Assembly (NCBI RefSeq): GCF_900163835.1
Contig: NZ_FUKR01000066.1
Location: 1 to 64,000 of the forward strand
Source of the DNA: Mycetocola reblochoni REB411
GTDB taxonomy: Bacteria; Actinomycetota; Actinomycetes; Actinomycetales; Microbacteriaceae
DNA: 64,000 bases
Direction: 5' to 3'
The position numbers and the translations under genes were made by a program. How positions within the stretch are numbered: position 1 is the stretch's first letter; each line of letters opens with the position of its first letter. Of the stretch, positions 2,213-40,800 are shown piece by piece. The notes below the pieces were generated by a model. It did no database searches and was not told the origin of the DNA. It worked only from the letters and a program-made list of their open reading frames with translations.

Positions 2213-2286
2213 GGGCCTGTAGCTCAGTTGGTTAGAGCGCCACGTTTACACCGTGGATGTCGGGGGTTCGAGTCCCTCCGGGCCCA
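2213..2286 (+). tRNA. tRNA-Val (anticodon TAC)
   Basis: The 74-nt cloverleaf has a 7-bp acceptor stem (GGGCCTG with CGGGCCC, one G-T pair), an anticodon stem CCACG/CGTGG with loop TTTACAC (anticodon TAC), a T loop TTCGAGT on a 5-bp stem, and discriminator A. The 3' CCA is not encoded; CCC follows the discriminator. The 3' half is shared with the end of the recombinase gene on the opposite strand, which marks it as the probable attachment site of the island. Confidence 0.95.
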
Positions 2287-3916
2287 CCCAGAGTGTCTTA
2301 CGGGAACACGCGACATCGGAAGATGTGGAGTGTTCCCGTTTGGCTTCCTTGCCTCCGGTCACCTCGTGAACGATCGTCGCGAATGGTTCCGCGAGTCGCG
2401 GGCGTAGTTGCTCGTCCTCGGTGATCTCCAACCGTGTGTAGAACGCCTGGTTCGCCAATCGACGGTTGCCGTCGTCGGAGTGGGCGTAGGCGTGGTGCGC
2501 GTCGGTGAGTAGTCGCAGGCTGTCGTGGAGGAATGCCCTGCCGCCGATCTGTTGCTCGTCGTGCTCGCGCAGGCGGTGCTCGATGTCGGCGAGCCCAGCA
2601 CGGATTCGGTCTTGGTGCCGCTTGAGTGTGGGCAGGTCGATGGCGTCGGCGAAATGCGCCGCCAGCAGCTTGTCACTCTCCGCCTCCAGGCGCGCCCGGT
2701 TCGTAGTGAGGTCAGCGAACTCGTGATCGCGCCCTGCGCCGCGCTCGTCGAACGCGGCGTCAACCTCGGCGGCGAGGTGCTGGTAGTCGGCTTCGCTGAT
2801 CGTGATGTTGGCGTAGGAGTCCTCGACCAGGCGCTCGGCAACCTGCACGGGCACAGCCCGTCGAGTACAGGTGGTCTTCTTCGCTGCCCGGCCTGAGCAG
2901 ACGAAGTAGGCATAGGTCGTGCCTCTTGGATTGGTCGCGAAGTCGAGCAACATCCGCGACCCGCAACTGCCGCAGTGCAGCAGGCCTTTCAGGTGGTGGG
3001 CGTGCTGGACGTGCCTGGTTGCGTACGCGTTGCGCACCTTCAACAGCGATTGCACCTGATCGAACAGGGCGGGCTCCACGATGGGCTCGTGCGCGCCAGG
3101 GTGATGTGCTCCCTTGTAGCGGATGACCCCGGCGTAGTACGGGTTCGTCAGCACACGGTATAGCGCGTTCTTCCCCAGCGGCCTGGATGGGCGCTTCGGC
3201 GACGGCACGGACACCAAGCCACGCGCGGTGAGGTCGCGCAGCAGCGCAGTCACGGAGGTCTCCCCTTCCGCGTAGCGCTCGAACGCCCAGGCGATGAGCG
3301 GTGCGCGTTCGGGATCGACCTCGACCGTGCGTATCTCGCGGCCTTGGTCGTCGGTGCGGCGGACGTTGAGGTAGCCGATGGGAGCGCGTCCTGGGGTGCC
3401 GCCCTGGGCGACCTTCTGGGTGAGGCCTTTGGTGACTTCGGTGGCGAGGTTGCGGCTGTAGAACTCGGCAATCGAGGACATGATGCCGTGGACGAGCATC
3501 CCCGAGGGCGTCTGGTCGATGGACTCGGTGGCAGAGACGAGGGTGACCCCGGCGTTGATGAGGGCTTCGTGAATCTTTACGTCGTCGGCGCGGTTGCGGG
3601 CGAGCCGGTCGAGCTTGTGAACGATGCAGAACTGCACACGGGTCGCGGCGAGGAACGCCAGCATCTCCTGTAGCCCATCACGATCTGCCGAGCGCGCCGA
3701 CTCGCCAGCGTCCACGAACTCCCGCACAATCCGCGCGCCCAGCTCGTCTGCCTTCCGCCGGTTGGCTTCACGCTGCGCGGGGATCGAGAATCCCTCGTCG
3801 GTGCCGCCACGCTCGGCCTGCTCTCGCGTCGAGACGCGGAGGTATGAGACGGCCAGCAGAACTGGTGCCTCCTCGGTGTGCTCGGACGCCGTGGCATCGA
3901 GGGCGGTGGTTCTCAT
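2246..3916 (-). CDS. Large serine recombinase / site-specific integrase
   Basis: The 556-residue protein has a resolvase catalytic domain at the N-terminus (YLRVSTREQ, nucleophile Ser29; later KLDRLARN), a Recombinase domain in the middle (GRAPIGYL, NPYYAGVIRYKG), a zinc ribbon near residues 310-360 (CGSCGSRM followed by further cysteines) and a helical C-terminal region. The start at 3916 has a strong AGGAGG six bases upstream. The last 14 residues (WVGPEGLEPPTSTV) are read from the tRNA-Val 3' half and the bases just beside it, and the TAA stop is formed by the anticodon loop. This is the usual outcome when an element has integrated in a tRNA gene. It probably catalyses integration and excision of the island. 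A small gene lies 10 bp upstream in the same direction. Confidence 0.95.
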   Translation of the reverse strand: MRTTALDATASEHTEEAPVLLAVSYLRVSTREQAERGGTDEGFSIPAQREANRRKADELGARIVREFVDAGESARSADRDGLQEMLAFLAATRVQFCIVHKLDRLARNRADDVKIHEALINAGVTLVSATESIDQTPSGMLVHGIMSSIAEFYSRNLATEVTKGLTQKVAQGGTPGRAPIGYLNVRRTDDQGREIRTVEVDPERAPLIAWAFERYAEGETSVTALLRDLTARGLVSVPSPKRPSRPLGKNALYRVLTNPYYAGVIRYKGAHHPGAHEPIVEPALFDQVQSLLKVRNAYATRHVQHAHHLKGLLHCGSCGSRMLLDFATNPRGTTYAYFVCSGRAAKKTTCTRRAVPVQVAERLVEDSYANITISEADYQHLAAEVDAAFDERGAGRDHEFADLTTNRARLEAESDKLLAAHFADAIDLPTLKRHQDRIRAGLADIEHRLREHDEQQIGGRAFLHDSLRLLTDAHHAYAHSDDGNRRLANQAFYTRLEITEDEQLRPRLAEPFATIVHEVTGGKEAKREHSTSSDVACSRKTLWVGPEGLEPPTSTV

Positions 3917-3926
3917 GATGTCCTCC

Positions 3927-4181
3927 TCATCGGAGCTCGCTTTGCCGTTGCTCTTGGCTGCGGTGTGACGGTGGTGCAAATTTTGCGCCACCGTCGAGAT
4001 GACCCGGCTGTTCTGCTCGGATGCTTTCGGGCGGGGGGAGCCCATAGGGGTCTGGCTTGCCGTCCCGCCAGGCACGGTGCCGCGCCTCGGCGATGTTCAG
4101 CACCCACTCGACCAGCTTGCTCAGGTCAGGCGTGTTTTGCCTCGTCACCCGAAGCCGTAAGCGCTGATCTTCAGTCCTCAT
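3927..4181 (-). CDS. Small conserved-looking protein upstream of recombinase
   Basis: This 84-residue frame starts at an ATG at 4181 and ends 10 bp before the recombinase start, so the two are probably cotranscribed. It contains an amphipathic segment (LVEWVLNIAEARHRAWRDG) and a Pro-rich middle. I do not recognise a domain. Its position suggests an accessory factor of the recombinase, for example a directionality factor, but this is inference only. Confidence 0.5.
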   Translation of the reverse strand: MRTEDQRLRLRVTRQNTPDLSKLVEWVLNIAEARHRAWRDGKPDPYGLPPPESIRAEQPGHLDGGAKFAPPSHRSQEQRQSELR

Positions 4182-4372: not shown

Positions 4373-5681
4373 CAGGGCCCCGGAAAGGTCGTATCTCAGC
4401 AGGTCAGGGCGCATGTGATGGCTGCTTCGGGGTTGCGGGCGTGGTGGCGTAGGGCGGTGGCGATGCTGTCCCTGCCGGTGAGTCGCAGGATTGAGATGGC
4501 GGTGTTGCGCAGGGTTGCCATGACGTGGGGCGTGGTACCTGTGCGGATCTGGGAGCGGTCTTCGTCGTAGGTGACGTCGCGGACCCAGTGGAGCTTGTTC
4601 TCGATGGCCCAGTGGCCCTGGACCCATGCGGCCAGGTCGGCGGGCGTCGCATCGTGGTGGGCCGCAGAGGTGATCAGGTAGACCACCTCAACGGTCTTCT
4701 TCCCGAGCTTGGTGGTGGTGCGGCGCAGTTGGGCGATCTGGGCGGCACCGGTGAACTCGGGCCAGCTGGGAAGAGTCGGAACTTCGATGACCTTGATGGT
4801 GCGGGTCGCGCGTCGTCCGTGTCCATGCTGGGTCGATTGCGACCCGCGCGGCACCGACTTCCAGGGCAATGTTCTAAGGGCAGCCAGCAGCGTGGGGCGG
4901 TTGGCCTTGACGGTGAAGACGTAGTCCGCGCCGGCATCGATGATGGCCTGGGCGGTGTCGTTCTGGGGGTGCATCGCATCGAGCGTGATCACGCATCCGT
5001 GCAGGTCAGCGGCATCGAAGCCGGCGAGGAGGTCACGCACGGCGGGGATCTCGTTCGATTTCGCTGCGACTGCGTGCTGGCCCACAACCACCCCGGTGGC
5101 GTGGTCCAAGGCAGCGATCAGATGCGGTGCTGTGGAGGTGGTGGTCCTGGCGCCGCGGATGGTCTTGCCGTCGATCGCGATCACCCGGCGACCCTGGATC
5201 TGGCGGATCCGGCACCAGGTGAAGACCGCGAGCGCGGCGTCGAGAGCGGCCGCGTCGATGCGGGCGAACAGCTTGCGCATCGTGGACTCCACCGGCGCTC
5301 GATCCAGGCCGAGCCGGTCTAGGTGCACGGCATCGAGGTCGAGGGCCCACTCCCCGATCGCAGCGAACGAGCGTGCACCGGCCAGCACGGCACATACGGC
5401 GACCGCGAGCACCCCGGCCAGCGGGTACCGCACCCCGCGAGGGTCACGCGGATCGGGCACCCGCTCCAGATGCTCGGGCAGGGTCTGAGGCGTGGCGGCG
5501 ACATGGGACGACGAGGCGATCGGGGAAGATGACACGAGCGGGTGTGGTCCTTAGGCGAGATGGTCAGTGTGAGAACTTCCATCCCAGTCCCTCGGACCAC
5601 ACCCGTCACACACGCCACGCCGGTCACACCGCCACATTCCCCCAGGTCACAGACCCATCAGCCGACCTTTCCGGGGCCCTG
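4373..5681 (-). mobile_element. Complete ISAs1-family insertion sequence, 1309 bp
   Basis: The element is bounded by perfect 19-bp terminal inverted repeats (CAGGGCCCCGGAAAGGTCG at 4373-4391 and its complement at 5663-5681) and a 10-bp target duplication. It holds one transposase gene that fills most of its length. Intact ends, identical duplications and an uninterrupted transposase imply recent insertion. It has inserted into the 3' end of a tetR gene. Confidence 0.93.
4396..5535 (-). CDS. ISAs1-family DDE transposase
   Basis: The 379-residue protein begins with the ISAs1-associated N-terminal domain (LPEHLERVPDPRDPRGVRYP; LDRAPVESTMRKLFAR) and continues into an RNase H-like DDE domain. It has IAIDGKTIRG (first Asp), VITLDAMHPQ (second Asp) and VFTVKANRPTL, then the C-terminal HWAIENKLHWVRDVTYDED block with the catalytic Glu. 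Length and motif order are normal for the family and no frame disruption is seen. It should cut and join the 19-bp ends of its own element. Confidence 0.95.
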   Translation of the reverse strand: MSSSPIASSSHVAATPQTLPEHLERVPDPRDPRGVRYPLAGVLAVAVCAVLAGARSFAAIGEWALDLDAVHLDRLGLDRAPVESTMRKLFARIDAAALDAALAVFTWCRIRQIQGRRVIAIDGKTIRGARTTTSTAPHLIAALDHATGVVVGQHAVAAKSNEIPAVRDLLAGFDAADLHGCVITLDAMHPQNDTAQAIIDAGADYVFTVKANRPTLLAALRTLPWKSVPRGSQSTQHGHGRRATRTIKVIEVPTLPSWPEFTGAAQIAQLRRTTTKLGKKTVEVVYLITSAAHHDATPADLAAWVQGHWAIENKLHWVRDVTYDEDRSQIRTGTTPHVMATLRNTAISILRLTGRDSIATALRHHARNPEAAITCALTC

Positions 5682-6411: not shown

Positions 6412-9207
6412 ATGAACGAGAGTAGTGATGAGCGCCTGGCGGCGGAGCAGCGCGCGCGGGTGCTGATCGACCGTCAGCTGGTTGCGTCGGGTTGGGCGGT
6501 GCAGGATCGCAGCGTGCTCAACCTCTTCGCACCACAGCAGGGTATCGCCGTCCGCGAGGTCATCATGAAGCCTGGCCATGGGCGCGTCGACTATCTGCTG
6601 TACGTCGACAAGGCCGTCGTCGGTGTGATCGAAGCGAAGCCGATAGGAACACCGCTCTCTGGCGTCGAGTGGCAGTCCGCAATGTACGCCACTGGCCTCC
6701 CCGAGGATGTGCGCCGCAAGACGCTCGACCCTGACGGACGCCTGCCCTTCGTCTTCGAGGCGTCAGGCACCGAGACCCATTTCACGAACGGTTTTGACCC
6801 AGCACCACGCGCCCGCCGCATCTTCGCGTTTCCCAGGCCCGAGACCCTCGCCACGACTATCCGTGCCGCAACAGAGAATCCCGATCAATCTCCGACCTGG
6901 CGGGGTAAGGTGCTCAGTTTGCCTTCGCTCGACCCCGCGCCGCTGCGTCCGGCGCAGGTCGATGCAATCAACGGCATTGAACAGAGCCTCGTCGAGCAGT
7001 GCTTTGGGCGCTCGCTGGTGCAGATGGCTACTGGCGCGGGCAAGACTTACACCGCCGTCACGGAGGCATATCGACTACTCAAGTGGGGTGGCTTCCAGCG
7101 CATCCTCTTCCTCGTGGACCGCAACAACCTCGCGGATCAGACGATGGGCGAGTTCCAGAACTACCGCACGCCCGACGATGGCCGCCGCTTTACTGAGCTG
7201 TACAACGTGACGAAGCTCGCCAGGGGTGGGATGCCGGCTTCCACGAAGGTCGCGATCTCCACGATCCAGCGTGTGTTCAAGGCTATCAAGAACGAAGACG
7301 TGCCCGAAGGTGACGACCAGGGCCTCGATGAGTTTCGTCCCGACGAACCCGTGACGGTCAGTTACAACCCCGACTTGCCGCCAGAGACCTTCGACCTCGT
7401 GATTGTCGATGAAGCACACCGTTCGATCTACGGCGTCTGGCGCGGGGTGCTCGAATACTTCGACGCTCACATCGTCGGGCTCACAGCCACACCGGGGAAG
7501 CAGACCTTCGGCTTCTTCCAGCAGAATCTCGTCTCGGAGTACACCTATCCGCAATCCGTTGCCGACGGCGTGAACGTCGACTTCGACATCTTCCGTATCA
7601 AGACCGAGATCACCGCGAACGGTTCCACCATCGCGGCCGGCACCTACGTGCCGACAGTGGATCGCAGCACCCGCGAGCAGAAGCTGATCCGGCTCGACAC
7701 CGATCTCGACTACACACCCGGCCAGCTCGATCGGGCGGTGACTTCGAAGCATCAGATCCGGCTCGTGCTGGAGACCTTCCGCGACCGGCTTTTCACCGAG
7801 ATCTTCCCCGGACGCCACACCGTGCCGAAGACACTCATCTTCGCCAAAGACGACAACCATGCCGAGGAGATCGTGCAGACCGTACGCGAAGTGTTCGGCA
7901 AGGGAAACGACTTCGCTGCGAAGATCACCTACTCCGCGAAAGACCCGAAGGGGCATCTGAAGGCGTTCCGCACCAATCCTGCAATGCGCATCGCGGTGAC
8001 CGTCGACATGATCGCCACCGGCACCGACGTCAAGCCGCTGGAATGCGTCATGTTCATGCGCGACGTGCGTAGCGGTCAGTACTACGAGCAGATGAAGGGC
8101 CGCGGTGCTCGAACCATCGCACCGGCCGACCTCAAAGCTGTCACCGACGACGCCGATGCGAAGACACGATTCGTGATCGTGGATGCCATCGGTGTGACCG
8201 AACACGACTTCGTCGAACCGCCCCTGAACCGCGAGAAAGCGATCAGCCTGAAGAAGCTGCTCGACAAAGCAGCGGCGCTCACCCTCACCGAAGACGAGGT
8301 CGCCACTCTGGCCAGCCGGCTGGCGGCTCTTGATCGACAGCTCACTCCCGCCGAACGCACCGAACTCGACGAAGTTGCAGCGCTGCAGGATGCAACAGCG
8401 TCGATGCATGCAATCGTGCGGGCGCTTGTGGATGCGGTCGATCCCGAGATCCAAGCCACCGCCGTTGCTGCAGAAACCGATCGCGCTCCCGCAGACGTAG
8501 TGCAAGACCTCCTCGACACGGCCGTTGAACCTCTGGCTGCCAACCCCGGGCTTCGGACGAGGATCATCGAGTTGCGCCGCGCGAAGGACCAGGTGATCGA
8601 CGAGGTGAGCCGCGACGAGGTGCTCGAAGCGTACGGTGTCGTGGACCCCGACAAGGCGAAGCACACGATCGAGTCGTGGCGGGGGTACCTCGCCGAGCAC
8701 CGCAGCGAGATCAGCGCGATCGAGCTAATGTTCGAGGCAAAGGGGCGAGGCATCCGCTTCGACCAGATCCAGGAACTCGCCGACCGGATCGCACGGCCAC
8801 CGCACAACTGGACCGTCGACCTCATCTGGAACTCATACCTTTCCATCGGCATCGAGTATCGAGGTCACACCGAGACCCGCAACCGGCACGCGGCAACCGA
8901 CCTGATCTCCTTGCTGAGGCTTGAGGCCGGAGTCGACAACGCACTCGTGCCCTACTCCGATCAAGTCGAAGCTCGCTACGCGAACTGGCTTCTTCGCCAG
9001 GAGCAGGCCGGAGCCACGTTCACCGAGACTCAGCGGTGGTGGCTGGACCGAATGATGCGGATCATCGCGTCCTCAGCGGGCATCGACGCCGACGACCTCG
9101 ACAACGCACCCTTCGACGAGCGCGGCGGCATCGACGGCGCCCTCCGCGACCTCGGAGACAACGCAGGCGACCTCATCGAAGAACTCAACCGGGAGCTCGC
9201 CGCGTGA
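6412..9207 (+). CDS. hsdR: Type I restriction endonuclease subunit R (EcoEI-like HsdR)
   Basis: This is the 931-residue motor and nuclease subunit. The N-terminal PD-(D/E)xK nuclease has Asp60 and Glu74-x-Lys76 (GRVDYLLYV, VIEAKP). The SF2 helicase has Walker A MATGAGKT (about 205-212), DEAH box VDEAHRS (about 332-338), LTATPGK, GTDVKPLECVMF (about 537) and motif VI QMKGRGAR (about 560). The C-terminal region resembles the EcoEI R C-terminal domain. With HsdS and HsdM it should translocate and cut DNA lacking the self methylation pattern. It is the first gene of the hsd cluster and overlaps hsdS by GTGA. An upstream ATG-rich region is non-coding, so 6412 is preferred. Confidence 0.95.
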   Translation: MNESSDERLAAEQRARVLIDRQLVASGWAVQDRSVLNLFAPQQGIAVREVIMKPGHGRVDYLLYVDKAVVGVIEAKPIGTPLSGVEWQSAMYATGLPEDVRRKTLDPDGRLPFVFEASGTETHFTNGFDPAPRARRIFAFPRPETLATTIRAATENPDQSPTWRGKVLSLPSLDPAPLRPAQVDAINGIEQSLVEQCFGRSLVQMATGAGKTYTAVTEAYRLLKWGGFQRILFLVDRNNLADQTMGEFQNYRTPDDGRRFTELYNVTKLARGGMPASTKVAISTIQRVFKAIKNEDVPEGDDQGLDEFRPDEPVTVSYNPDLPPETFDLVIVDEAHRSIYGVWRGVLEYFDAHIVGLTATPGKQTFGFFQQNLVSEYTYPQSVADGVNVDFDIFRIKTEITANGSTIAAGTYVPTVDRSTREQKLIRLDTDLDYTPGQLDRAVTSKHQIRLVLETFRDRLFTEIFPGRHTVPKTLIFAKDDNHAEEIVQTVREVFGKGNDFAAKITYSAKDPKGHLKAFRTNPAMRIAVTVDMIATGTDVKPLECVMFMRDVRSGQYYEQMKGRGARTIAPADLKAVTDDADAKTRFVIVDAIGVTEHDFVEPPLNREKAISLKKLLDKAAALTLTEDEVATLASRLAALDRQLTPAERTELDEVAALQDATASMHAIVRALVDAVDPEIQATAVAAETDRAPADVVQDLLDTAVEPLAANPGLRTRIIELRRAKDQVIDEVSRDEVLEAYGVVDPDKAKHTIESWRGYLAEHRSEISAIELMFEAKGRGIRFDQIQELADRIARPPHNWTVDLIWNSYLSIGIEYRGHTETRNRHAATDLISLLRLEAGVDNALVPYSDQVEARYANWLLRQEQAGATFTETQRWWLDRMMRIIASSAGIDADDLDNAPFDERGGIDGALRDLGDNAGDLIEELNRELAA

Positions 9208-10439
9208 CGTGGGAGAGGGCGACGCTCGGTGACGTCTGCCTCAAAGTGGTGAAGCGCGACCCGGTAGCGACAGGTAGAGCGCGTATCAGATACATCGATA
9301 TCGGAGGCATCGATGGGACACTCCATCGCCTCGGTGACGTTCCGGAGATTGACTCCGTCGGTGCACCGAGCCGATGCCGCCAAATCGTGGCTGCTGGGGA
9401 CACTGTTTTTGCGACGGTTCGCCCTTACTTGGAGAAGATTGCGTACGTCGACGGACCGCTCGACGGAGAGTTTGCTTCTACCGGTTTCTCAGTGCTGCGA
9501 CCTGGGCCTCGGCTTGAGCCCAAGTTCTTGTACTACTTCACGATCTCGCAAGAGATGTTCGACCAGGTGCTTCCGTACCAGAAGGGTGTGAGTTACCCCG
9601 CTGTTCTCGATCGTGAGGTGCGCTCGGTCTCGATGCCGGTGCCTCCGCTGGAGGAGCAGCGCCGGATCGTCGCGACCCTCGAAGACCACCTCTCCCGCCT
9701 CGACGCCGCCGATTCGCAACTTGACGCCGCGGCAAGGAGGACATCGGCTCTCAGTGCCCATGTGCTGGCCCACGCGTTGGCAGATGCAACCTGCGATGAG
9801 CTCCCGTTGACAAGTCTGCTCGGCCGCGATCTCGCCAATGGGCGCTCGGTGAAGACACGCAAAGGCGGATTTCCGGTACTTCGACTTACGGCACTCAACG
9901 ACGGCATGGTCGATCTTCGAGAGCGCAAGCCGGGCGCGTGGACAGCGGACGAAGCGGAGCGATTCCTTGTACATCAAGGTGACTTTCTCATCTCGCGGGG
10001 AAACGGAAGTCTGCATCTGGTAGGTCGAGGTGGGCTCGTCGCGGAGGACCCCGATCCTGTCGCTTTCCCAGATACGTTGATACGAGCGCGCCCGCGTGCT
10101 GACCTACTCGACGCGGGATTTCTCGCGCTTGTGTGGAACTCGACGAGCGTCCGTCGCCAGATCGAGCAAGTGGCCAAGACAACTGCCGGAATCTATAAGG
10201 TCAACCAGAGAGATCTGGGTCGCGTCGTCGTCCCGGTTCCGTCATTGCCGGATCAGCGCCGTATCTTTGCCGAGGTCGCAGCGAGACGCGAGACTCTCGG
10301 ACGGCTCACACAGGCTACGGGTGCTGCACGTGAACGCTCCAGTGCCCTCCGCCGCTCCCTCCTCGGGGCAGCCTTCTCGGGCCGCCTCACGGGAGCCTCG
10401 TCGGAAATGTCAGTGGTCGAGGGGAGGATTGAGACATGA
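9204..10439 (+). CDS. hsdS: Type I restriction specificity subunit S
   Basis: The 411-residue protein has the two-half layout of HsdS. Target recognition domain 1 (about residues 1-145) is followed by the conserved repeat PPLEEQRRIVATLEDHL and a helix. Domain 2 (about 190-345) is followed by PSLPDQRRIFAEVAARR and a second helix. The two halves should each read one part of a split DNA target. The GTG start overlaps the hsdR stop (GTGA) and the stop overlaps the next ATG (ATGA), so hsdR, hsdS and the next gene form one translationally coupled unit. The recognised sequence cannot be predicted here. Confidence 0.93.
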   Translation: MTWERATLGDVCLKVVKRDPVATGRARIRYIDIGGIDGTLHRLGDVPEIDSVGAPSRCRQIVAAGDTVFATVRPYLEKIAYVDGPLDGEFASTGFSVLRPGPRLEPKFLYYFTISQEMFDQVLPYQKGVSYPAVLDREVRSVSMPVPPLEEQRRIVATLEDHLSRLDAADSQLDAAARRTSALSAHVLAHALADATCDELPLTSLLGRDLANGRSVKTRKGGFPVLRLTALNDGMVDLRERKPGAWTADEAERFLVHQGDFLISRGNGSLHLVGRGGLVAEDPDPVAFPDTLIRARPRADLLDAGFLALVWNSTSVRRQIEQVAKTTAGIYKVNQRDLGRVVVPVPSLPDQRRIFAEVAARRETLGRLTQATGAARERSSALRRSLLGAAFSGRLTGASSEMSVVEGRIET

Positions 10440-11338
10440 ACGGTAAGCAGGTCAAGCTCTTCCTCGTGGACGGCACTCCCGGCGGTTTGACAACGGCGGA
10501 GATCACGAACTGGACGGGCAGCGTGCTCTCTGCGCGCCGTTCTGACCTTGCGGAGCTACTGCGTCGTGAGGAAGCCGAGCGCACCGGCGCCTACTTGCTG
10601 CTGGGTGAGGACGAAGACGCTGTTGGTGACACCCGCTGCTACGTCGGCGAGGCCGATGTCGTGGCAACACGGCTCCGTGCTCATGCTAAAGAGAAGTCGT
10701 TCTGGAGCCAGGCGGTGCTCATCACCTCGAAGGACACGAACCTCACGAAATCGCACGTGCGCTACCTGGAGTCGCGCCTGATCGAACTCGCCCAGCAGGC
10801 CGGGCGAGTCACGCTGGAGAACGGGACGGCTCCGCCGCGGCCCAGGCTGCCCGAGGCCGACGTGTCAGACATGGAGTACTTCCTCGGCGAGCTGCAGATT
10901 GTGCTTCCTGTGCTCGGAGTCAACGCCATCCGGGTGCGCGCGGCGAGGTCGCAAACTGTCGTCTCCTCACCCGCAGAGTCTCCGGTGTTCACACTGACGA
11001 ACAAGCACAGAACCGTTGACGCGCGCGCACAGCAGATCGACGGTGAGTTCATCATGCTTAGTGGCTCCGTCGTTGTCCCAACTTGGCACGGCGTGGGTAA
11101 CGCGCGCAGTACCCAGAAGGCCTACGCGAACTACCGCGCACAGCATGAGGGCCTGGTTGCCGATGGCTCCATCGTGGTCGAGAGTGGGACGGCCCGAACA
11201 ACCCGTGACATCGTCTTCGGCTCACCCTCGACAGCGGGGGCGGTCGCACTCGGCCGCTCGTGCAACGGGCGCGTCGAGTGGGTGGGCCCCGAGGGCTCGT
11301 TCGGTGCGTGGGAGAGCCGCGGGGTCGAGGATGACTGA
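10436..11338 (+). CDS. GIY-YIG nuclease-domain protein with DUF4357-like C-terminus
   Basis: The 300-residue protein has a GIY-YIG-type core at about residues 50-122: GAYLLLG (51-57) for GIY, CYVG (68-71) for YIG, arginines at 79-81 and the catalytic-type Glu in LESRLIELAQ (112). The C-terminal third (TRDIVFGSPSTAGAVALGRS and beyond) resembles DUF4357, which is often paired with this fold. The start overlaps hsdS (ATGA). A nuclease inside an R-M operon may add a second cleavage activity or repair role. Neither is proven by sequence. Confidence 0.85.
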   Translation: MNGKQVKLFLVDGTPGGLTTAEITNWTGSVLSARRSDLAELLRREEAERTGAYLLLGEDEDAVGDTRCYVGEADVVATRLRAHAKEKSFWSQAVLITSKDTNLTKSHVRYLESRLIELAQQAGRVTLENGTAPPRPRLPEADVSDMEYFLGELQIVLPVLGVNAIRVRAARSQTVVSSPAESPVFTLTNKHRTVDARAQQIDGEFIMLSGSVVVPTWHGVGNARSTQKAYANYRAQHEGLVADGSIVVESGTARTTRDIVFGSPSTAGAVALGRSCNGRVEWVGPEGSFGAWESRGVEDD

Positions 11339-11350
11339 AGCTCGCAGCAC

Positions 11351-11380
11351 TTGGCCTACGGCCAGGAGTGGGGTTACACT
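11351..11380 (+). promoter_or_regulatory. Possible internal promoter before the Abi gene
   Basis: TTGGCC (11351-11356), an 18-bp spacer and TACACT (11375-11380) precede the Abi gene. The transcript would contain a hairpin (CAGCCC 11394-11399 with GGGCTG 11417-11422, and CCAG/CTGG inside) just before the start codon. Confidence 0.4.
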
Positions 11381-11446
11381 TGAGTCAACAGTTCAGCCCG
11401 CCCAGTCTTCTGGTGTGGGCTGGATCTCTTGTCAGGGATCGCTCGG

Positions 11447-12412
11447 GTGACGCGCCCTGTCAAGCCATACGGCTCGCTCGATGAGCACCTTGCCAAGCTG
11501 GAGCAGCGCGGCATGGCGCTCGACCCTGTGTTCGCAGCGCAGTGGCTTGGGAGCGTCGGCTACTACCGGCTGAGCGGCTACTGGTATCCGTATCGGGTCC
11601 TGAAGGGTAACCAGCGTGGGGACTCGTTCGAGCCCGGCACGTCCTTTACTGATGTGGTGGCTCTGTATGAGTTCGACCGCAAGCTCCGCACGCTCGTCCA
11701 TGACGGCGTGGAGCGGGTCGAGGTGATGCTCCGCGCACAGCTCAACGAGACGGTCGGCGCGTATGGCGCTTTGGCGTACCTCGACAGAGCGCACTTTCGC
11801 CCCACGTTCGATCACGCATCCTGGTTGACCACCGCACAGAGGCGCATCGACCGTTCGCGCCGCCGCAACGATGCTGTGCGACATCACGATGAGCACTACG
11901 GTGGGCAGTTGCCGATCTGGGTACTGTCGGAGGTGCTCGACTTCGCGGACGTATCCCGCCTCTATGAGGGATTGCCTGCGAGAGTGCAATGGGAGATTGC
12001 CGAGCGGCTTGGTGTGGAGATCGACCTCGGAGCATTGCGCAAGAGTCAGGCGGATCGAGCGAAGAAGAACCATCCGCTCGTGCGATGGTTTGAGCAGCTA
12101 GCGATCGTACGCAACACGAGTGCTCACCATGCGCGACTGTGGAACAGGTCCTTCACCCCGGTCGGCACTGCTGCTATGAGGACGATTCCAGAACTTGTCA
12201 ATCTCCCGGAGGGGCAGAGCGAGCGACTCTACGGCGCGCTGTGTGTGATGGGTCTTCTGCTCGATGCGGCCTCACCGGGAACAACCTGGCGTGGCAAGGT
12301 CCGCGATCTCGTCGAAACTTCGTTCATGGAGATTCATGCTCGCCGGGTCGAGGAGATGGGATTCCCCGAGATGTGGCGCAATGATCCGTTCTGGTCGAGG
12401 AGGCCGCAATGA
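11447..12412 (+). CDS. Abi_2-family (AbiD/AbiF-like) abortive infection protein with HEPN motif
   Basis: The 321-residue protein matches the Abi_2 family: PVKPYGSLDEHLAKLEQRG and a VGYYRLSGYWYPYR block near the start, LYEFDRKLRTLVHDGVERVE in the middle, and RNTSAHHARLWNR at about 222-234, which supplies the R-x4-6-H motif of HEPN ribonucleases. Family members stop phage growth, presumably by RNA cleavage that arrests the cell. The GTG at 11447 is chosen for the AGGGA nine bases upstream; a TTG at 11429 is possible. Its stop overlaps the hsdM ATG (ATGA), so Abi and the methylase are cotranslated. This recalls anticodon nucleases embedded in type I loci. Confidence 0.9.
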   Translation: MTRPVKPYGSLDEHLAKLEQRGMALDPVFAAQWLGSVGYYRLSGYWYPYRVLKGNQRGDSFEPGTSFTDVVALYEFDRKLRTLVHDGVERVEVMLRAQLNETVGAYGALAYLDRAHFRPTFDHASWLTTAQRRIDRSRRRNDAVRHHDEHYGGQLPIWVLSEVLDFADVSRLYEGLPARVQWEIAERLGVEIDLGALRKSQADRAKKNHPLVRWFEQLAIVRNTSAHHARLWNRSFTPVGTAAMRTIPELVNLPEGQSERLYGALCVMGLLLDAASPGTTWRGKVRDLVETSFMEIHARRVEEMGFPEMWRNDPFWSRRPQ

Positions 12413-13887
12413 CTGATTCTCGGCGTTTGGTCGACAAGCTCGACTCGTTCCGTAACCTCCTCCGTGACGACGGGGTGGGGGTGCTCGACTACATTGAGCA
12501 GCTCACCTATCTGCTATTCCTCAAGATGGCGCACGAACGCGCGACGAGAAAACTGAAGCCGCAGCAGATTGTGCCGCAGGAATACTCATGGCAGCGTCTG
12601 CTCGACGCCGAAGGTGCGGCGCTCGAAGCCGAGTATGCGCGAATCCTCGTGGGGCTGGCCGGGCAGCCCGGCACTCTCGGAGTCATCTTCCGCAAGGCTC
12701 AGAACCGGATCCAGGACCCGGCGAAACTCAAGCGTCTCATCGTTGACCTGATCGACAAAGAGCAGTGGTCGGCCTCCGGAACCGATATTAAGGGTGACGC
12801 CTACGAGCAGCTACTCGCAAAGGGTGCGTCCGACAAGGGATCGGGTGCTGGTCAGTACTTCACCCCGCGCGATCTGATTCAGGCAATCGTCGACGTGATC
12901 CAGCCGACGGCCGATGACTCCGTGATCGACCCCGCGTGCGGTACGGGTGGGTTCCTCCTCGTCGCCCACGATTATGCATCGAGCCACGCAGAGCGGCTGA
13001 CGCCGATCCAACGCGACCGGCTGCGCGATCACTTCGCTCACGGCACGGAACTCGTGGACGGTACCGCACGGCTAGCCGCGATGAATCTCCTGCTTCACGG
13101 CATCGGCACTCCCGACGGCGACTCGCTGATCGACGTGCGCGATGCGCTCATCGCCGATCCCGGAGAGCGCTACAGCGTCGTGCTCTCCAACCCCCCGTTC
13201 GGAAGGAAGTCGTCGATGACGATGGTCGGTGCCGATGGCCGCGAGTCGAAGGAAGACACCGAGATCGAGCGGGCCGACTTCGTCACCACTACCTCGAACA
13301 AGCAGCTCAACTTCCTGCAGCACATCATGACGATCCTCGACATCAACGGTCGTGCGGCCGTTGTGCTGCCCGACAACGTGCTCTTCGAAGGTGGAGCGGG
13401 CGAAGTGCTGCGACGCAAGCTCCTCAATGACTTCGACTTGCACACCATCCTCCGTCTCCCGACCGGAATCTTCTACGCCCAAGGTGTCAAGGCGAACGTG
13501 CTGTTCTTCGACAAGAAGCCCGCGAGTGAGACTCCCTGGACTCGGAAGCTCTGGGTGTACGACCTGCGCACGAACCAGCACTTCACTCTCAAGCAGAACC
13601 CGCTGCGCAGAGCCCATCTGAACGAGTTCGTCGAGTCGTACCTGGCAGGCTCATCACGCGACGCGCGCCTGGAATCAGAACGCTGGAAGTCGTTCGAGTA
13701 CGACGAGCTGATCGCCCGCGACAAGGTCAACCTCGACATCACCTGGCTGCGCGATGACTCCCTCGACGACCTCGACTCGCTGCCCGCACCCGACGTCATC
13801 GCCCGCGAAATCGTTGAAGACCTCACGGCTGCTCTCGCCGAGTTCGAGGCAGTCGCCGCCGCGCTGGAAACCTCCTCCGCTGATTAG
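12409..13887 (+). CDS. hsdM: Type I DNA adenine methyltransferase subunit M
   Basis: The 492-residue protein has the HsdM N-terminal helical domain (about 1-140: FRNLLRDDGVGVLDYIEQLTYLLF), then an N6-adenine methylase fold. Motif I is DPACGTGGFL (about 174-183) and motif IV is NPPF (261-264). It uses S-adenosylmethionine to protect host DNA and pairs with HsdS. It is the last gene of the locus, behind Abi, which differs from the common M-S-R or R-M-S order. Confidence 0.95.
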   Translation: MTDSRRLVDKLDSFRNLLRDDGVGVLDYIEQLTYLLFLKMAHERATRKLKPQQIVPQEYSWQRLLDAEGAALEAEYARILVGLAGQPGTLGVIFRKAQNRIQDPAKLKRLIVDLIDKEQWSASGTDIKGDAYEQLLAKGASDKGSGAGQYFTPRDLIQAIVDVIQPTADDSVIDPACGTGGFLLVAHDYASSHAERLTPIQRDRLRDHFAHGTELVDGTARLAAMNLLLHGIGTPDGDSLIDVRDALIADPGERYSVVLSNPPFGRKSSMTMVGADGRESKEDTEIERADFVTTTSNKQLNFLQHIMTILDINGRAAVVLPDNVLFEGGAGEVLRRKLLNDFDLHTILRLPTGIFYAQGVKANVLFFDKKPASETPWTRKLWVYDLRTNQHFTLKQNPLRRAHLNEFVESYLAGSSRDARLESERWKSFEYDELIARDKVNLDITWLRDDSLDDLDSLPAPDVIAREIVEDLTAALAEFEAVAAALETSSAD

Positions 13888-13968: not shown

Positions 13969-14835
13969 CTATTGAAGGTTCAGGAAGTCTGCCTTGAACG
14001 CGTTGATGAAGTACCCGTACTCGTCGAAGTCGAGGGCTAGCGGTCTCATGAGATTGAAAAGTTCAGCCCCGGTTCCCTGGAGCCGAAGCTGTGACGGATT
14101 GATGTCCGCAACGCCAAGTATGTAGCTCGCGCCAGAGTCTGCCACCAGATCGAGTTTGACCAGTTGATAGAGCTCAAAGAGAACGCCAACCTGGAGCGGA
14201 TCGAGAGTTTCCTGACCTCGGAAGTCTCTTGTTCTCACCGTGTTTGACAGCTCACCACTGCCAATGATGAAGATGCCAGTGAGCTGCCTGTAGGTCAGCG
14301 ACTCCATGAGCGACAATATGTAGTTTGCGTGTCCAGAATCAAGATCAGTCCGGAATACCACATTGGTGTAGAAGTTCGCGAGAAGCGCCACCTTGCGCTC
14401 CTCAAAGGCCTTCCGCGCCGCGAGAAAAGTTCCTTCGAGTAGCTCATCTGCCTCGGAGCGAAGCTTCTTCGCTTTCTTTCGCTCGCGCGGCCTGAAGAAG
14501 GACTCCGATCGCAGCTGCTCGCCCCCGTTCAGTCGTTGCACAATCTGGTTCTGAGCGAGCACATACAACGAGCCCATGCGGTCCTGCTCAGTCTGTGCCG
14601 TGAATCGCGCCGCTACATCACCTGCGACGGTCTTCATGCCATCCTGCAGCAGTGCACCTGCCGCAGCTCCAGCAACTGCTCCGGGAGGGCCAGCTACGGC
14701 CGTGCCGAGGGCCGCTCCCGCAGCTATTCCGAGCGCACCGGCACCCGACGTGATCATCCTCGTCAGAGCGTCGTCTGCGCCACCGTTCTCGTGCATCCCT
14801 GTCCTTATCGTGCTGTCGTCGTTGTGCTCAACCAC
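13969..14835 (-). CDS. Unknown protein with glycine-zipper membrane-like segment
   Basis: The 288-residue protein is not recognised. Residues about 26-75 are a Gly/Ala-rich hydrophobic run (GAGALGIAAGAALGTAVAG and more) like a glycine zipper or paired membrane helices. A basic stretch follows (RPRERKKAKKLRSEADELL), then a helical region with LLANFYTNVVF and ANYILSLMESLTYRQL. It converges on hsdM with an 81-bp gap and reads on the opposite strand. The setting in a defence locus makes a membrane effector possible, but I see no proof. ATG at 14796 is an alternative start. Confidence 0.75.
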   Translation of the reverse strand: MVEHNDDSTIRTGMHENGGADDALTRMITSGAGALGIAAGAALGTAVAGPPGAVAGAAAGALLQDGMKTVAGDVAARFTAQTEQDRMGSLYVLAQNQIVQRLNGGEQLRSESFFRPRERKKAKKLRSEADELLEGTFLAARKAFEERKVALLANFYTNVVFRTDLDSGHANYILSLMESLTYRQLTGIFIIGSGELSNTVRTRDFRGQETLDPLQVGVLFELYQLVKLDLVADSGASYILGVADINPSQLRLQGTGAELFNLMRPLALDFDEYGYFINAFKADFLNLQ

Positions 14836-33917: not shown

Positions 33918-34275
<358 letters not shown>

Positions 34276-34278
34276 CGC

Positions 34279-40765: not shown

Positions 40766-40800
40766 GCGGGCCCGCCCAGCGTGAGCTGGTGCGGGCCCGC
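40766..40800. terminator. Bidirectional terminator between glnE and glnA1
   Basis: A 10-bp GCGGGCCCGC stem (40766-40775 with 40791-40800) is extended by CCAGC/GCTGG around a GTGA loop. Confidence 0.8.

What the first reader, a model, noticed from the sequence alone, without database searches (positions are those of the whole stretch)
6412..13887. Type I R-M operon with embedded HEPN Abi and GIY-YIG nuclease
The order is hsdR-hsdS-GIY-YIG-Abi-hsdM. The overlaps GTGA, ATGA and ATGA join R to S to the nuclease, and Abi to M. An RNase-type Abi inside an R-M locus resembles the PrrC arrangement, where an anticodon nuclease is held silent by the R-M complex and released when a phage inhibits it. 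Here Abi and M are cotranslated, so the methylase subunit may be the brake. Together they could form a two-layer defence: DNA cleavage first, then dormancy.
Basis: partly seen in the sequence, partly recalled or inferred. Interest (0 to 1): 0.65.

Follow-up and report, generated by a model that had tools for sequence, protein, structure and literature searches.

The report
RNA-braked toxin inside restriction operon
A bacterial DNA-cutting defence operon carries a built-in RNA-cutting toxin, and comparison with relatives suggests that the toxin is held silent by its own small RNA just upstream, not by the defence proteins around it.

Summary
The genes are as described: hsdR-hsdS-GIY-Abi-hsdM with GTGA/ATGA/ATGA junctions. 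The order recurs in four other genomes. It holds a ~44-nt hairpin RNA (11387-11430) behind a TANNNT box. This is the most conserved 40-nt stretch of the GIY-Abi region, shows compensatory changes, and also precedes plasmid Abi genes with no R-M gene found beside them. In 296 genomes its only matches above 50 bits outside the window, two, lie directly upstream of Abi genes. Abi is a homologue of PbAbiF, solved as an RNA-bound dimer. Leucobacter zeae keeps RNA and Abi though no HsdM was found in its genome. So Abi is most likely an AbiF-type toxin with its own RNA antitoxin, carried in an R-M operon; HsdM as brake is poorly supported. The S-M slot holds other toxin genes in sister operons (PIN, AbiE, Fic/DOC). 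Transcription and antitoxin activity are inferred, not shown. Rfam does not match this RNA.

The parts
6412..9207 (+). hsdR, type I restriction subunit (EcoEI_R_C)
9204..10439 (+). hsdS, specificity subunit; GTGA overlap with hsdR
10436..11338 (+). GIY-YIG-type nuclease with C-terminal DUF4357 (PADLOC candidate PDC-S14); ATGA overlap with hsdS; Y53, Y69, E112 invariant and R79 nearly so in 11 aligned homologues (one of them a fragment)
11351..11380 (+). inferred promoter TTGGCC-N18-TACACT; a TANNNT box lies 15-21 nt before the hairpin in 42 of 45 Abi loci
   Evidence: the E. coli-consensus scan found no promoter
11387..11430 (+). small hairpin RNA (15-pair stem with one bulge at 11391-11425, then CTCTTG; CTCTTTT in the relatives); proposed RNA antitoxin and attenuator of Abi
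11447..12412 (+). abi, AbiF/AbiD-type HEPN toxin, 321 aa, R222-x4-H227; GTG start revised from 11429
12409..13887 (+). hsdM, methylase subunit; ATGA overlap with abi

Best explanation
The locus is a type I R-M operon with a self-contained AbiF-type RNA-toxin module (small RNA + HEPN RNase) inserted between the GIY-YIG gene and hsdM. Mechanism: a promoter in the GIY-Abi gap makes a ~44-nt hairpin RNA that mostly ends at its U-rich tract. The RNA binds Abi dimers and blocks the HEPN site; occasional read-through makes Abi, and with it the overlapping hsdM. When a phage stops transcription or destroys RNA, or when the operon is lost, the RNA falls and Abi cleaves RNA and stops growth. Shown by sequence and comparison: gene order, RNA conservation and covariation, position of the -10 box, AbiF homology and fold, persistence where no HsdM is found. 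Inferred: transcription, binding, neutralisation, trigger, target.
For: Abi matches the PbAbiF-ncRNA structure 8VZ6: phmmer E 9e-36, the only hit at E<=10; Foldseek E 1.2e-15, TM 0.79/0.84, the only PDB match at E<=0.001 (model pLDDT 89). The RNA is the most conserved 40-nt window of the GIY-Abi region (0.88 invariant columns versus a mean of 0.52 in 4 loci), while synonymous sites of Abi are near saturation (dS 2.1 and 2.4 between the window and L061/L062). Structure: 98.3% of cells paired, 3 pairs with two-sided change, covariation score reached by 0/500 shuffles; similar with two members found by the genome scan; RNAalifold gives the same 15 pairs unprompted. The same RNA precedes plasmid Abi genes of Rhodococcus and Mycolicibacterium, beside which tblastn finds no HsdR or HsdM. 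Scan of 296 genomes: the two matches above 50 bits outside the window (64 and 57 bits) both lie just upstream of Abi genes. Hairpin + U-run upstream of Abi in 45 of 52 loci versus 24 of 169 control genes; TANNNT 15-21 nt before the hairpin in 42 of 45, against 1-5 of 45 in each of ten other 7-nt bins and a mean of 5.3 in shuffles. L. zeae keeps RNA + Abi without HsdR or HsdM beside it and with no HsdM match found in its genome. In G442 a transposase gene pair splits hsdR while Abi and M stay open.
Against: Nothing shows that this RNA is made or binds Abi. It lacks the canonical abiF motif (no Rfam match), and L061/L063 carry in addition an abiF-like element (L061: 28.8 bits, below the 37-bit cut-off; L063 by eye) that the window clade lacks, so the conserved hairpin could be only a leader or terminator. 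The E. coli-type promoter scan found nothing, and terminator-like sites were no more frequent than in shuffles (4 against a mean of 4.4). Two of the five covariation measures are reached by many shuffles: pairs with two-sided change 47/500 and 144/500, further pair types 483/500 and 499/500. R1 is only one of several hairpin types upstream of Abi genes, and it matches weakly at places without Abi. Some R-M link is not excluded: the Abi-hsdM overlap is conserved.
Confidence: 0.74

Rival explanations
1. PrrC-like guard: HsdM or the whole R-M complex holds Abi silent, and phage anti-restriction releases it.
For: Conserved position and 4-nt or 8-nt overlap of Abi with hsdM in all five operons with this order; published proposal for R-M-embedded HEPN proteins (PMC3710099, passages).
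Against: L. zeae: open Abi, no HsdM match found in the genome. Close Abi relatives with the same RNA lie on plasmids with no HsdM or HsdR found beside them. Sister operons have M without Abi: 5 with S directly next to M and 1 with GIY only. No ABC-ATPase.
Confidence: 0.1
2. The hairpin is only a 5' leader or terminator that limits abi-hsdM expression (as reported for the structured 5'UTR of L. lactis AbiD1), not an antitoxin that binds the protein.
For: It sits directly before the ribosome site and ends in a U-rich tract. PMC12373285 (passages) reports a structured, phage-activated 5'UTR for AbiD1 and premature termination for RCd22.
Against: The near-invariant sequence, beyond pairing, suggests recognition; in the two characterised AbiF systems described there the upstream RNA binds the protein and neutralises it (PMC12373285, PMC12737573, passages).
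Confidence: 0.14
3. Abi is an inert remnant.
For: None found beyond its patchy distribution.
Against: dN/dS 0.09-0.14 in the 8 of 10 pairs of Abi genes for which dS could be computed; R222, N223, H227, H228 invariant in 10 sequences.
Confidence: 0.02

Closest known systems
AbiF-RNA toxin-antitoxin systems (PbAbiF/AbiFr; AbiF-Cd/RCd22 of C. difficile phages)
   Same: Abi_2 HEPN protein with R-x4-H; structured RNA upstream with promoter and terminator, then ribosome site and toxin gene; PbAbiF fold (PMC12373285, PMC12737573, passages).
   Different: The RNA differs from Rfam abiF (RF03085) and is not matched by it; the module sits inside a type I R-M operon and overlaps hsdM.
PrrC-EcoprrI
   Same: HEPN RNase gene embedded in a type I R-M operon (PMC3710099, PMC12707154, passages).
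   Different: No ABC-ATPase; an RNA element accompanies Abi; Abi persists where no HsdM is found.
Lactococcal AbiD1
   Same: Same protein group; structured RNA ahead of the gene (PMC12373285, passages).
   Different: There a phage protein activates translation; here neither trigger nor target is known.
PADLOC PDC-S14 (GIY-YIG/DUF4357 candidate)
   Same: The window protein is a member (E 1.7e-117); relatives also lie near other HsdM-type methylases.
   Different: Function unknown; the plasmid Abi loci L141-L146 have no GIY match.

Membership tests
AbiF/AbiD (Abi_2) toxin | Abi_2 domain | tested here: met
   Pfam Abi_2 161 bits, cut-off 25.6; PADLOC AbiD E 7e-59
AbiF/AbiD (Abi_2) toxin | HEPN R-x4-6-H site | tested here: met
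   R222/H227 invariant in A1 (10 sequences) and, numbered 221/226, in A5 (24 sequences)
AbiF/AbiD (Abi_2) toxin | fold of PbAbiF | tested here: met
   8VZ6 TM 0.79/0.84, E 1.2e-15
AbiF/AbiD (Abi_2) toxin | toxic RNase activity | not testable with these tools
   needs an expression assay
AbiF RNA toxin-antitoxin (type III-like) | structured RNA element directly upstream, with -10 box and U-rich end | tested here: met
   comparative evidence only; transcription itself not tested
AbiF RNA toxin-antitoxin (type III-like) | RNA binds and neutralises the toxin | not testable with these tools
   needs trans rescue and co-purification
Rfam abiF RNA (RF03085) | match to the covariance model | tested here: not met
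   no match at E<=10 in the gap or in the own genome (150 of 891 candidates scored); so the window RNA is not filed under RF03085
Type I R-M system | HsdR, HsdS, HsdM together | tested here: met
Type I R-M system | restriction and modification activity | not testable with these tools
   needs methylome and plating assays
PrrC guard system | ABC-ATPase joined to HEPN | tested here: not met
   only Abi_2 found
PrrC guard system | RNase held latent by Hsd subunits | tested here: inconclusive
   no direct test; L. zeae keeps Abi with no HsdM found, which speaks against it

The most novel reading that the evidence does not exclude
The hsdS-hsdM junction of this type I R-M family is a docking slot for complete toxin modules of unrelated kinds, each with its own brake. 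In the AbiF version the brake is an unannotated RNA whose promoter and attenuator also drive hsdM, so that methylase supply and toxin supply are one switch: losing or silencing the operon frees the toxin, and the 'missing antitoxins' of R-M-embedded toxins are, at least in part, RNAs.
Probability: 0.3. Interest if true: 0.78.

Novelty: new variant of a known kind. Interest (0 to 1): 0.6.

Why it matters
Makarova 2012 noted that immunity loci carry toxins but do not appear to encode typical antitoxins, and raised the possibility that the immunity proteins themselves restrain them, as in PrrC (PMC3506569, abstract passage). Here the brake is most likely a small RNA that protein annotation cannot see, which makes that open question directly testable. 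It also gives an RNA class that Rfam does not match (R1) and whose strong matches mark Abi genes, and a slot in a type I R-M family that holds several different toxin types.

Tried and rejected
Rfam on the gap gave nothing, and no abiF RNA was found elsewhere in the own genome (only 150 of 891 candidates were scored), so a canonical antitoxin in trans is not supported. The idea that the window clade had simply lost its antitoxin (it lacks the abiF-like stretch of L061/L063) was dropped once the shared hairpin was seen before Abi in all six operon-type loci and before three plasmid Abi genes. A PrrC-like brake by HsdM was weighed through natural losses and set aside as the leading view. Rfam on 20 of the 56 viral-contig Abi loci gave no abiF match at the gathering score, so a canonical abiF RNA is not general upstream of Abi genes. 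The E. coli-consensus promoter scan was empty. The GIY protein could not be folded (4 sequences, pLDDT 34.5), and phmmer found no convincing PDB relative. No attR repeat of 16 nt or more to the tRNA-Val end was found in the window. R1 also gives weak matches away from Abi: none of the 12 weaker loci fetched (L226-L237, 26-37 bits) had an Abi match, two more were not fetched, and window 40769-40797 matches at 20.7 bits. In the 296-genome scan only 19 candidates per genome were scored, under stricter filters. Control genes are mechanical ORFs, not curated genes. The 52 Abi loci include near-duplicates (for example L142/L204, L144/L205); one further locus (L100) gave no usable Abi start and was dropped.
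Full report
WHAT IS THERE. hsdR carries ResIII and EcoEI_R_C, hsdM N6_Mtase and HsdM_N, hsdS Methylase_S. The third gene matches DUF4357 in Pfam and PADLOC PDC-S14 (E 1.7e-117). Pfam reports no GIY-YIG domain in it, but an orthologue on a Streptomyces plasmid is annotated as GIY-YIG, and Y53, Y69 and E112 are invariant, R79 nearly so, in 11 aligned homologues (that these are the residues of GIY-YIG nucleases is from recall). The fourth gene is Abi_2. Its start is better placed at GTG 11447, because L035 and L062 have no start codon at the position of 11429. This leaves 108 nt between GIY and Abi.

THE ORDER ELSEWHERE. R-S-GIY-Abi-M recurs in L037 (Propionicimonas MAG), L036/L063 (Homoserinimonas; two copies of what looks like the same contig), L061 (G442; same place as L024) and L062 (G776). 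In L061 a transposase gene pair (Pfam HTH_Tnp_1 and rve) splits hsdR after about residue 51, while Abi and M are open. In L035 (Leucobacter zeae) only the end of hsdS, GIY, the RNA and Abi remain: a recombinase remnant abuts hsdS, and no hsdM match follows Abi in the 10 kb held. A search of that genome for HsdM at E<=1e-5 found nothing (7 candidates scored), although the same query rang in other genomes. Its Abi is open and keeps the Abi_2 domain.

THE RNA. Aligning the gaps of the relatives shows one stretch that barely changes, GTTCAGCCCGCCCAG..CTGGTGTGGGCTGGATCTCTT, just ahead of the ribosome site. Across GIY and Abi of 4 loci it is the best-conserved 40-nt window (0.88 versus a mean of 0.52), while Abi synonymous sites are near saturation (dS 2.1 and 2.4 between the window and L061/L062; dN/dS 0.09 and 0.12). 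It folds into a 15-pair hairpin with one bulge. Plasmid Abi genes 43-50% identical to the window's, from Rhodococcus fascians, Mycolicibacterium and another Rhodococcus, have the same RNA with changed but still pairing bases; no R-M gene is among their listed neighbours within 6 kb, and tblastn with the window's HsdR and HsdM finds nothing there. On 9 sequences (8 distinct), 98.3% of cells pair, three pairs show two-sided change, and no shuffle of 500 reaches the covariation score; the counts of such pairs and of pair types are reached by 47 and 483 of 500 shuffles. A wider alignment of 12 sequences pairs in 99.2% of outer-stem cells. RNAalifold finds the same 15 pairs unprompted. A covariance model (R1) searched in 61 loci found, besides the training loci and a copy of one of them, seven matches at E<=1: six lie upstream of Abi genes and one, partial, at window 40769-40797; most other Abi loci in that search gave no match, since they carry other hairpin types. 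A scan of 296 class-level genomes gave 17 genomes with matches at E<=0.001. The window itself (71 bits), G1038 (64) and G1040 (57) stand out; the last two lie directly upstream of Abi genes 52% and 40% identical to the window's. The 12 weaker loci that were fetched (26-37 bits) have no Abi match, and two were not fetched. Adding the two finds keeps the covariation. In the own genome the next-best R1 match has 23 bits.

A GENERAL LAYOUT. A hairpin followed by a U-run lies within 100 nt of Abi in 45 of 52, and in 24 of 169 controls; mean folding z is -2.05 against -0.23 (Mann-Whitney p 9.5e-15; loci are not all independent). Of the 7 misses, L094 is the place where Rfam abiF scores 47 bits (L016); L089-L093 share by eye another element, CCCxxCACGC .. 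GAACCxGGCxGGGTC (the first copy in L093 differs a little); L096 shows nothing. In 42 of the 45 a TANNNT box lies 15-21 nt before the stem; other 7-nt bins of the same 90 nt hold 1-5 of 45, and mononucleotide shuffles give a mean of 5.3. RF03085 reaches the gathering score in one of 17 loci tested and lies below it upstream of Abi in five more. L061 carries, besides the conserved hairpin, an abiF-like element about 50 nt further upstream (28.8 bits, below cut-off), and L063 does so by eye.

THE PROTEIN. phmmer against the PDB gives one hit at E<=10, 8VZ6 PbAbiF, E 9e-36. The AlphaFold2 model (24 sequences, pLDDT 89) matches only 8VZ6 at E<=0.001 (TM 0.79/0.84). The phage search lists C. difficile phage phiC2 AbiF as a homologue at 26% identity. 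PMC12373285 (passages) reports for AbiF-Cd a SigA promoter, an RNA (RCd22) ending at a terminator, then ribosome site and abiF; toxicity in C. difficile and E. coli; neutralisation in cis and trans by direct binding; and R202/H207 matching R210/H215 of PbAbiF. PMC12737573 (passages) summarises AbiFr as the antitoxin of AbiF. The primary Cell 2025 paper did not appear in my searches and was not read.

THE SLOT. I examined 24 loci with an HsdM of this family. They were found partly through Abi, GIY or plasmid searches, so proportions are biased. In 18 the S-M interval is resolved: GIY+RNA+Abi in 5 (window, L037, L061, L062, L063); GIY fragment + PIN in L077; GIY alone in L147; nothing in L129, L130, L133, L136, L140; a DUF2283-like ORF (below cut-off) in L131; AbiEi/AbiEii plus a third gene in L132; an AAA ATPase in L134; DUF4258 + MqsA-like (the latter below cut-off) in L135; an unknown 290-aa protein (and a 145-aa ORF) in L137; a RhuM/Fic-DOC protein in L222 (HsdS in L129, L130, L132, L134, L137 and L140 confirmed by Pfam). 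Two are partial: L128 has a PIN gene directly before M but no R or S match in 13 kb, and L223 has an hsdR-hsdS fusion remnant, then sce7726/sce7725/RES before M. L138, L139, L220 and L221 are unresolved. So 9 of 18 resolved slots hold a known or likely toxin gene, and both partial ones do (that DUF4258 and RES act as toxins is recalled).

INTERPRETATION. The simplest reading is an AbiF-type toxin with its own RNA, carried as cargo in the operon. HsdM is unlikely to be the brake. Because the hairpin ends in a U-rich tract and abi overlaps hsdM, the same promoter and attenuator may also set the supply of HsdM; this is inference. A dual arrangement, RNA brake plus sensing of R-M failure, is not excluded.

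NOVELTY. Abi2/AbiF/AbiD proteins in R-M operons, and the idea that R-M subunits restrain HEPN RNases, are in print (PMC3710099, passages). Makarova 2012 stated that immunity loci do not appear to encode typical antitoxins (PMC3506569, passage). My searches for AbiF RNA, for Abi_2 with R-M operons, and for toxin modules in type I R-M operons (searches list only part of their finds) show no paper whose title or shown abstract describes an RNA antitoxin in an R-M operon; most subscription papers are not held. I rate it a new variant of a known kind.

Noticed in passing
window 2213-4075: tRNA-Val overlapped by the 3' end of a serine recombinase gene on the other strand; L037 has a like pair (tRNA 634-706; recombinase 81% identical), so the R-M island probably moves as an integrative element between families. 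No attR repeat of 16 nt or more found in the window.
   Followed up: partly
window 4396-5535: ISAs1-family transposase between the recombinase and the R-M operon.
   Followed up: no
L061:9241-9276 and, by eye, the same stretch in L063: An abiF-like RNA (L061: Rfam 28.8 bits, below cut-off) about 50 nt upstream of the conserved hairpin: two different RNAs before one Abi gene.
   Followed up: partly
L093, upstream of Abi: Two tandem copies of another hairpin type (CCCCGCACGC..AGCGGGG and ..GGCGGGG), each followed by T-rich sequence, before one Abi gene (by eye).
   Followed up: no
L077:7937-8978 (- strand) and L128:7403-8697: A PIN gene directly before hsdM; its likely partner shares the C-terminal tail ...GIEL.DEEF..F..AVRG, which in L077 is joined to the first half of the GIY protein.
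   Followed up: partly
L222:2821-3822 (-), L223:5247-8172, L132:4679-8136: RhuM/Fic-DOC, sce7726-sce7725-RES and AbiE genes just upstream of hsdM in related operons; in L223 hsdR and hsdS are fused remnants.
   Followed up: partly
window 13969-14835 (-): A gene convergent to hsdM with only a weak match to the PdsO model (30.9 bits, cut-off 152); function unknown.
   Followed up: no
window 33919-34278: RNase P RNA, class A.
   Followed up: no
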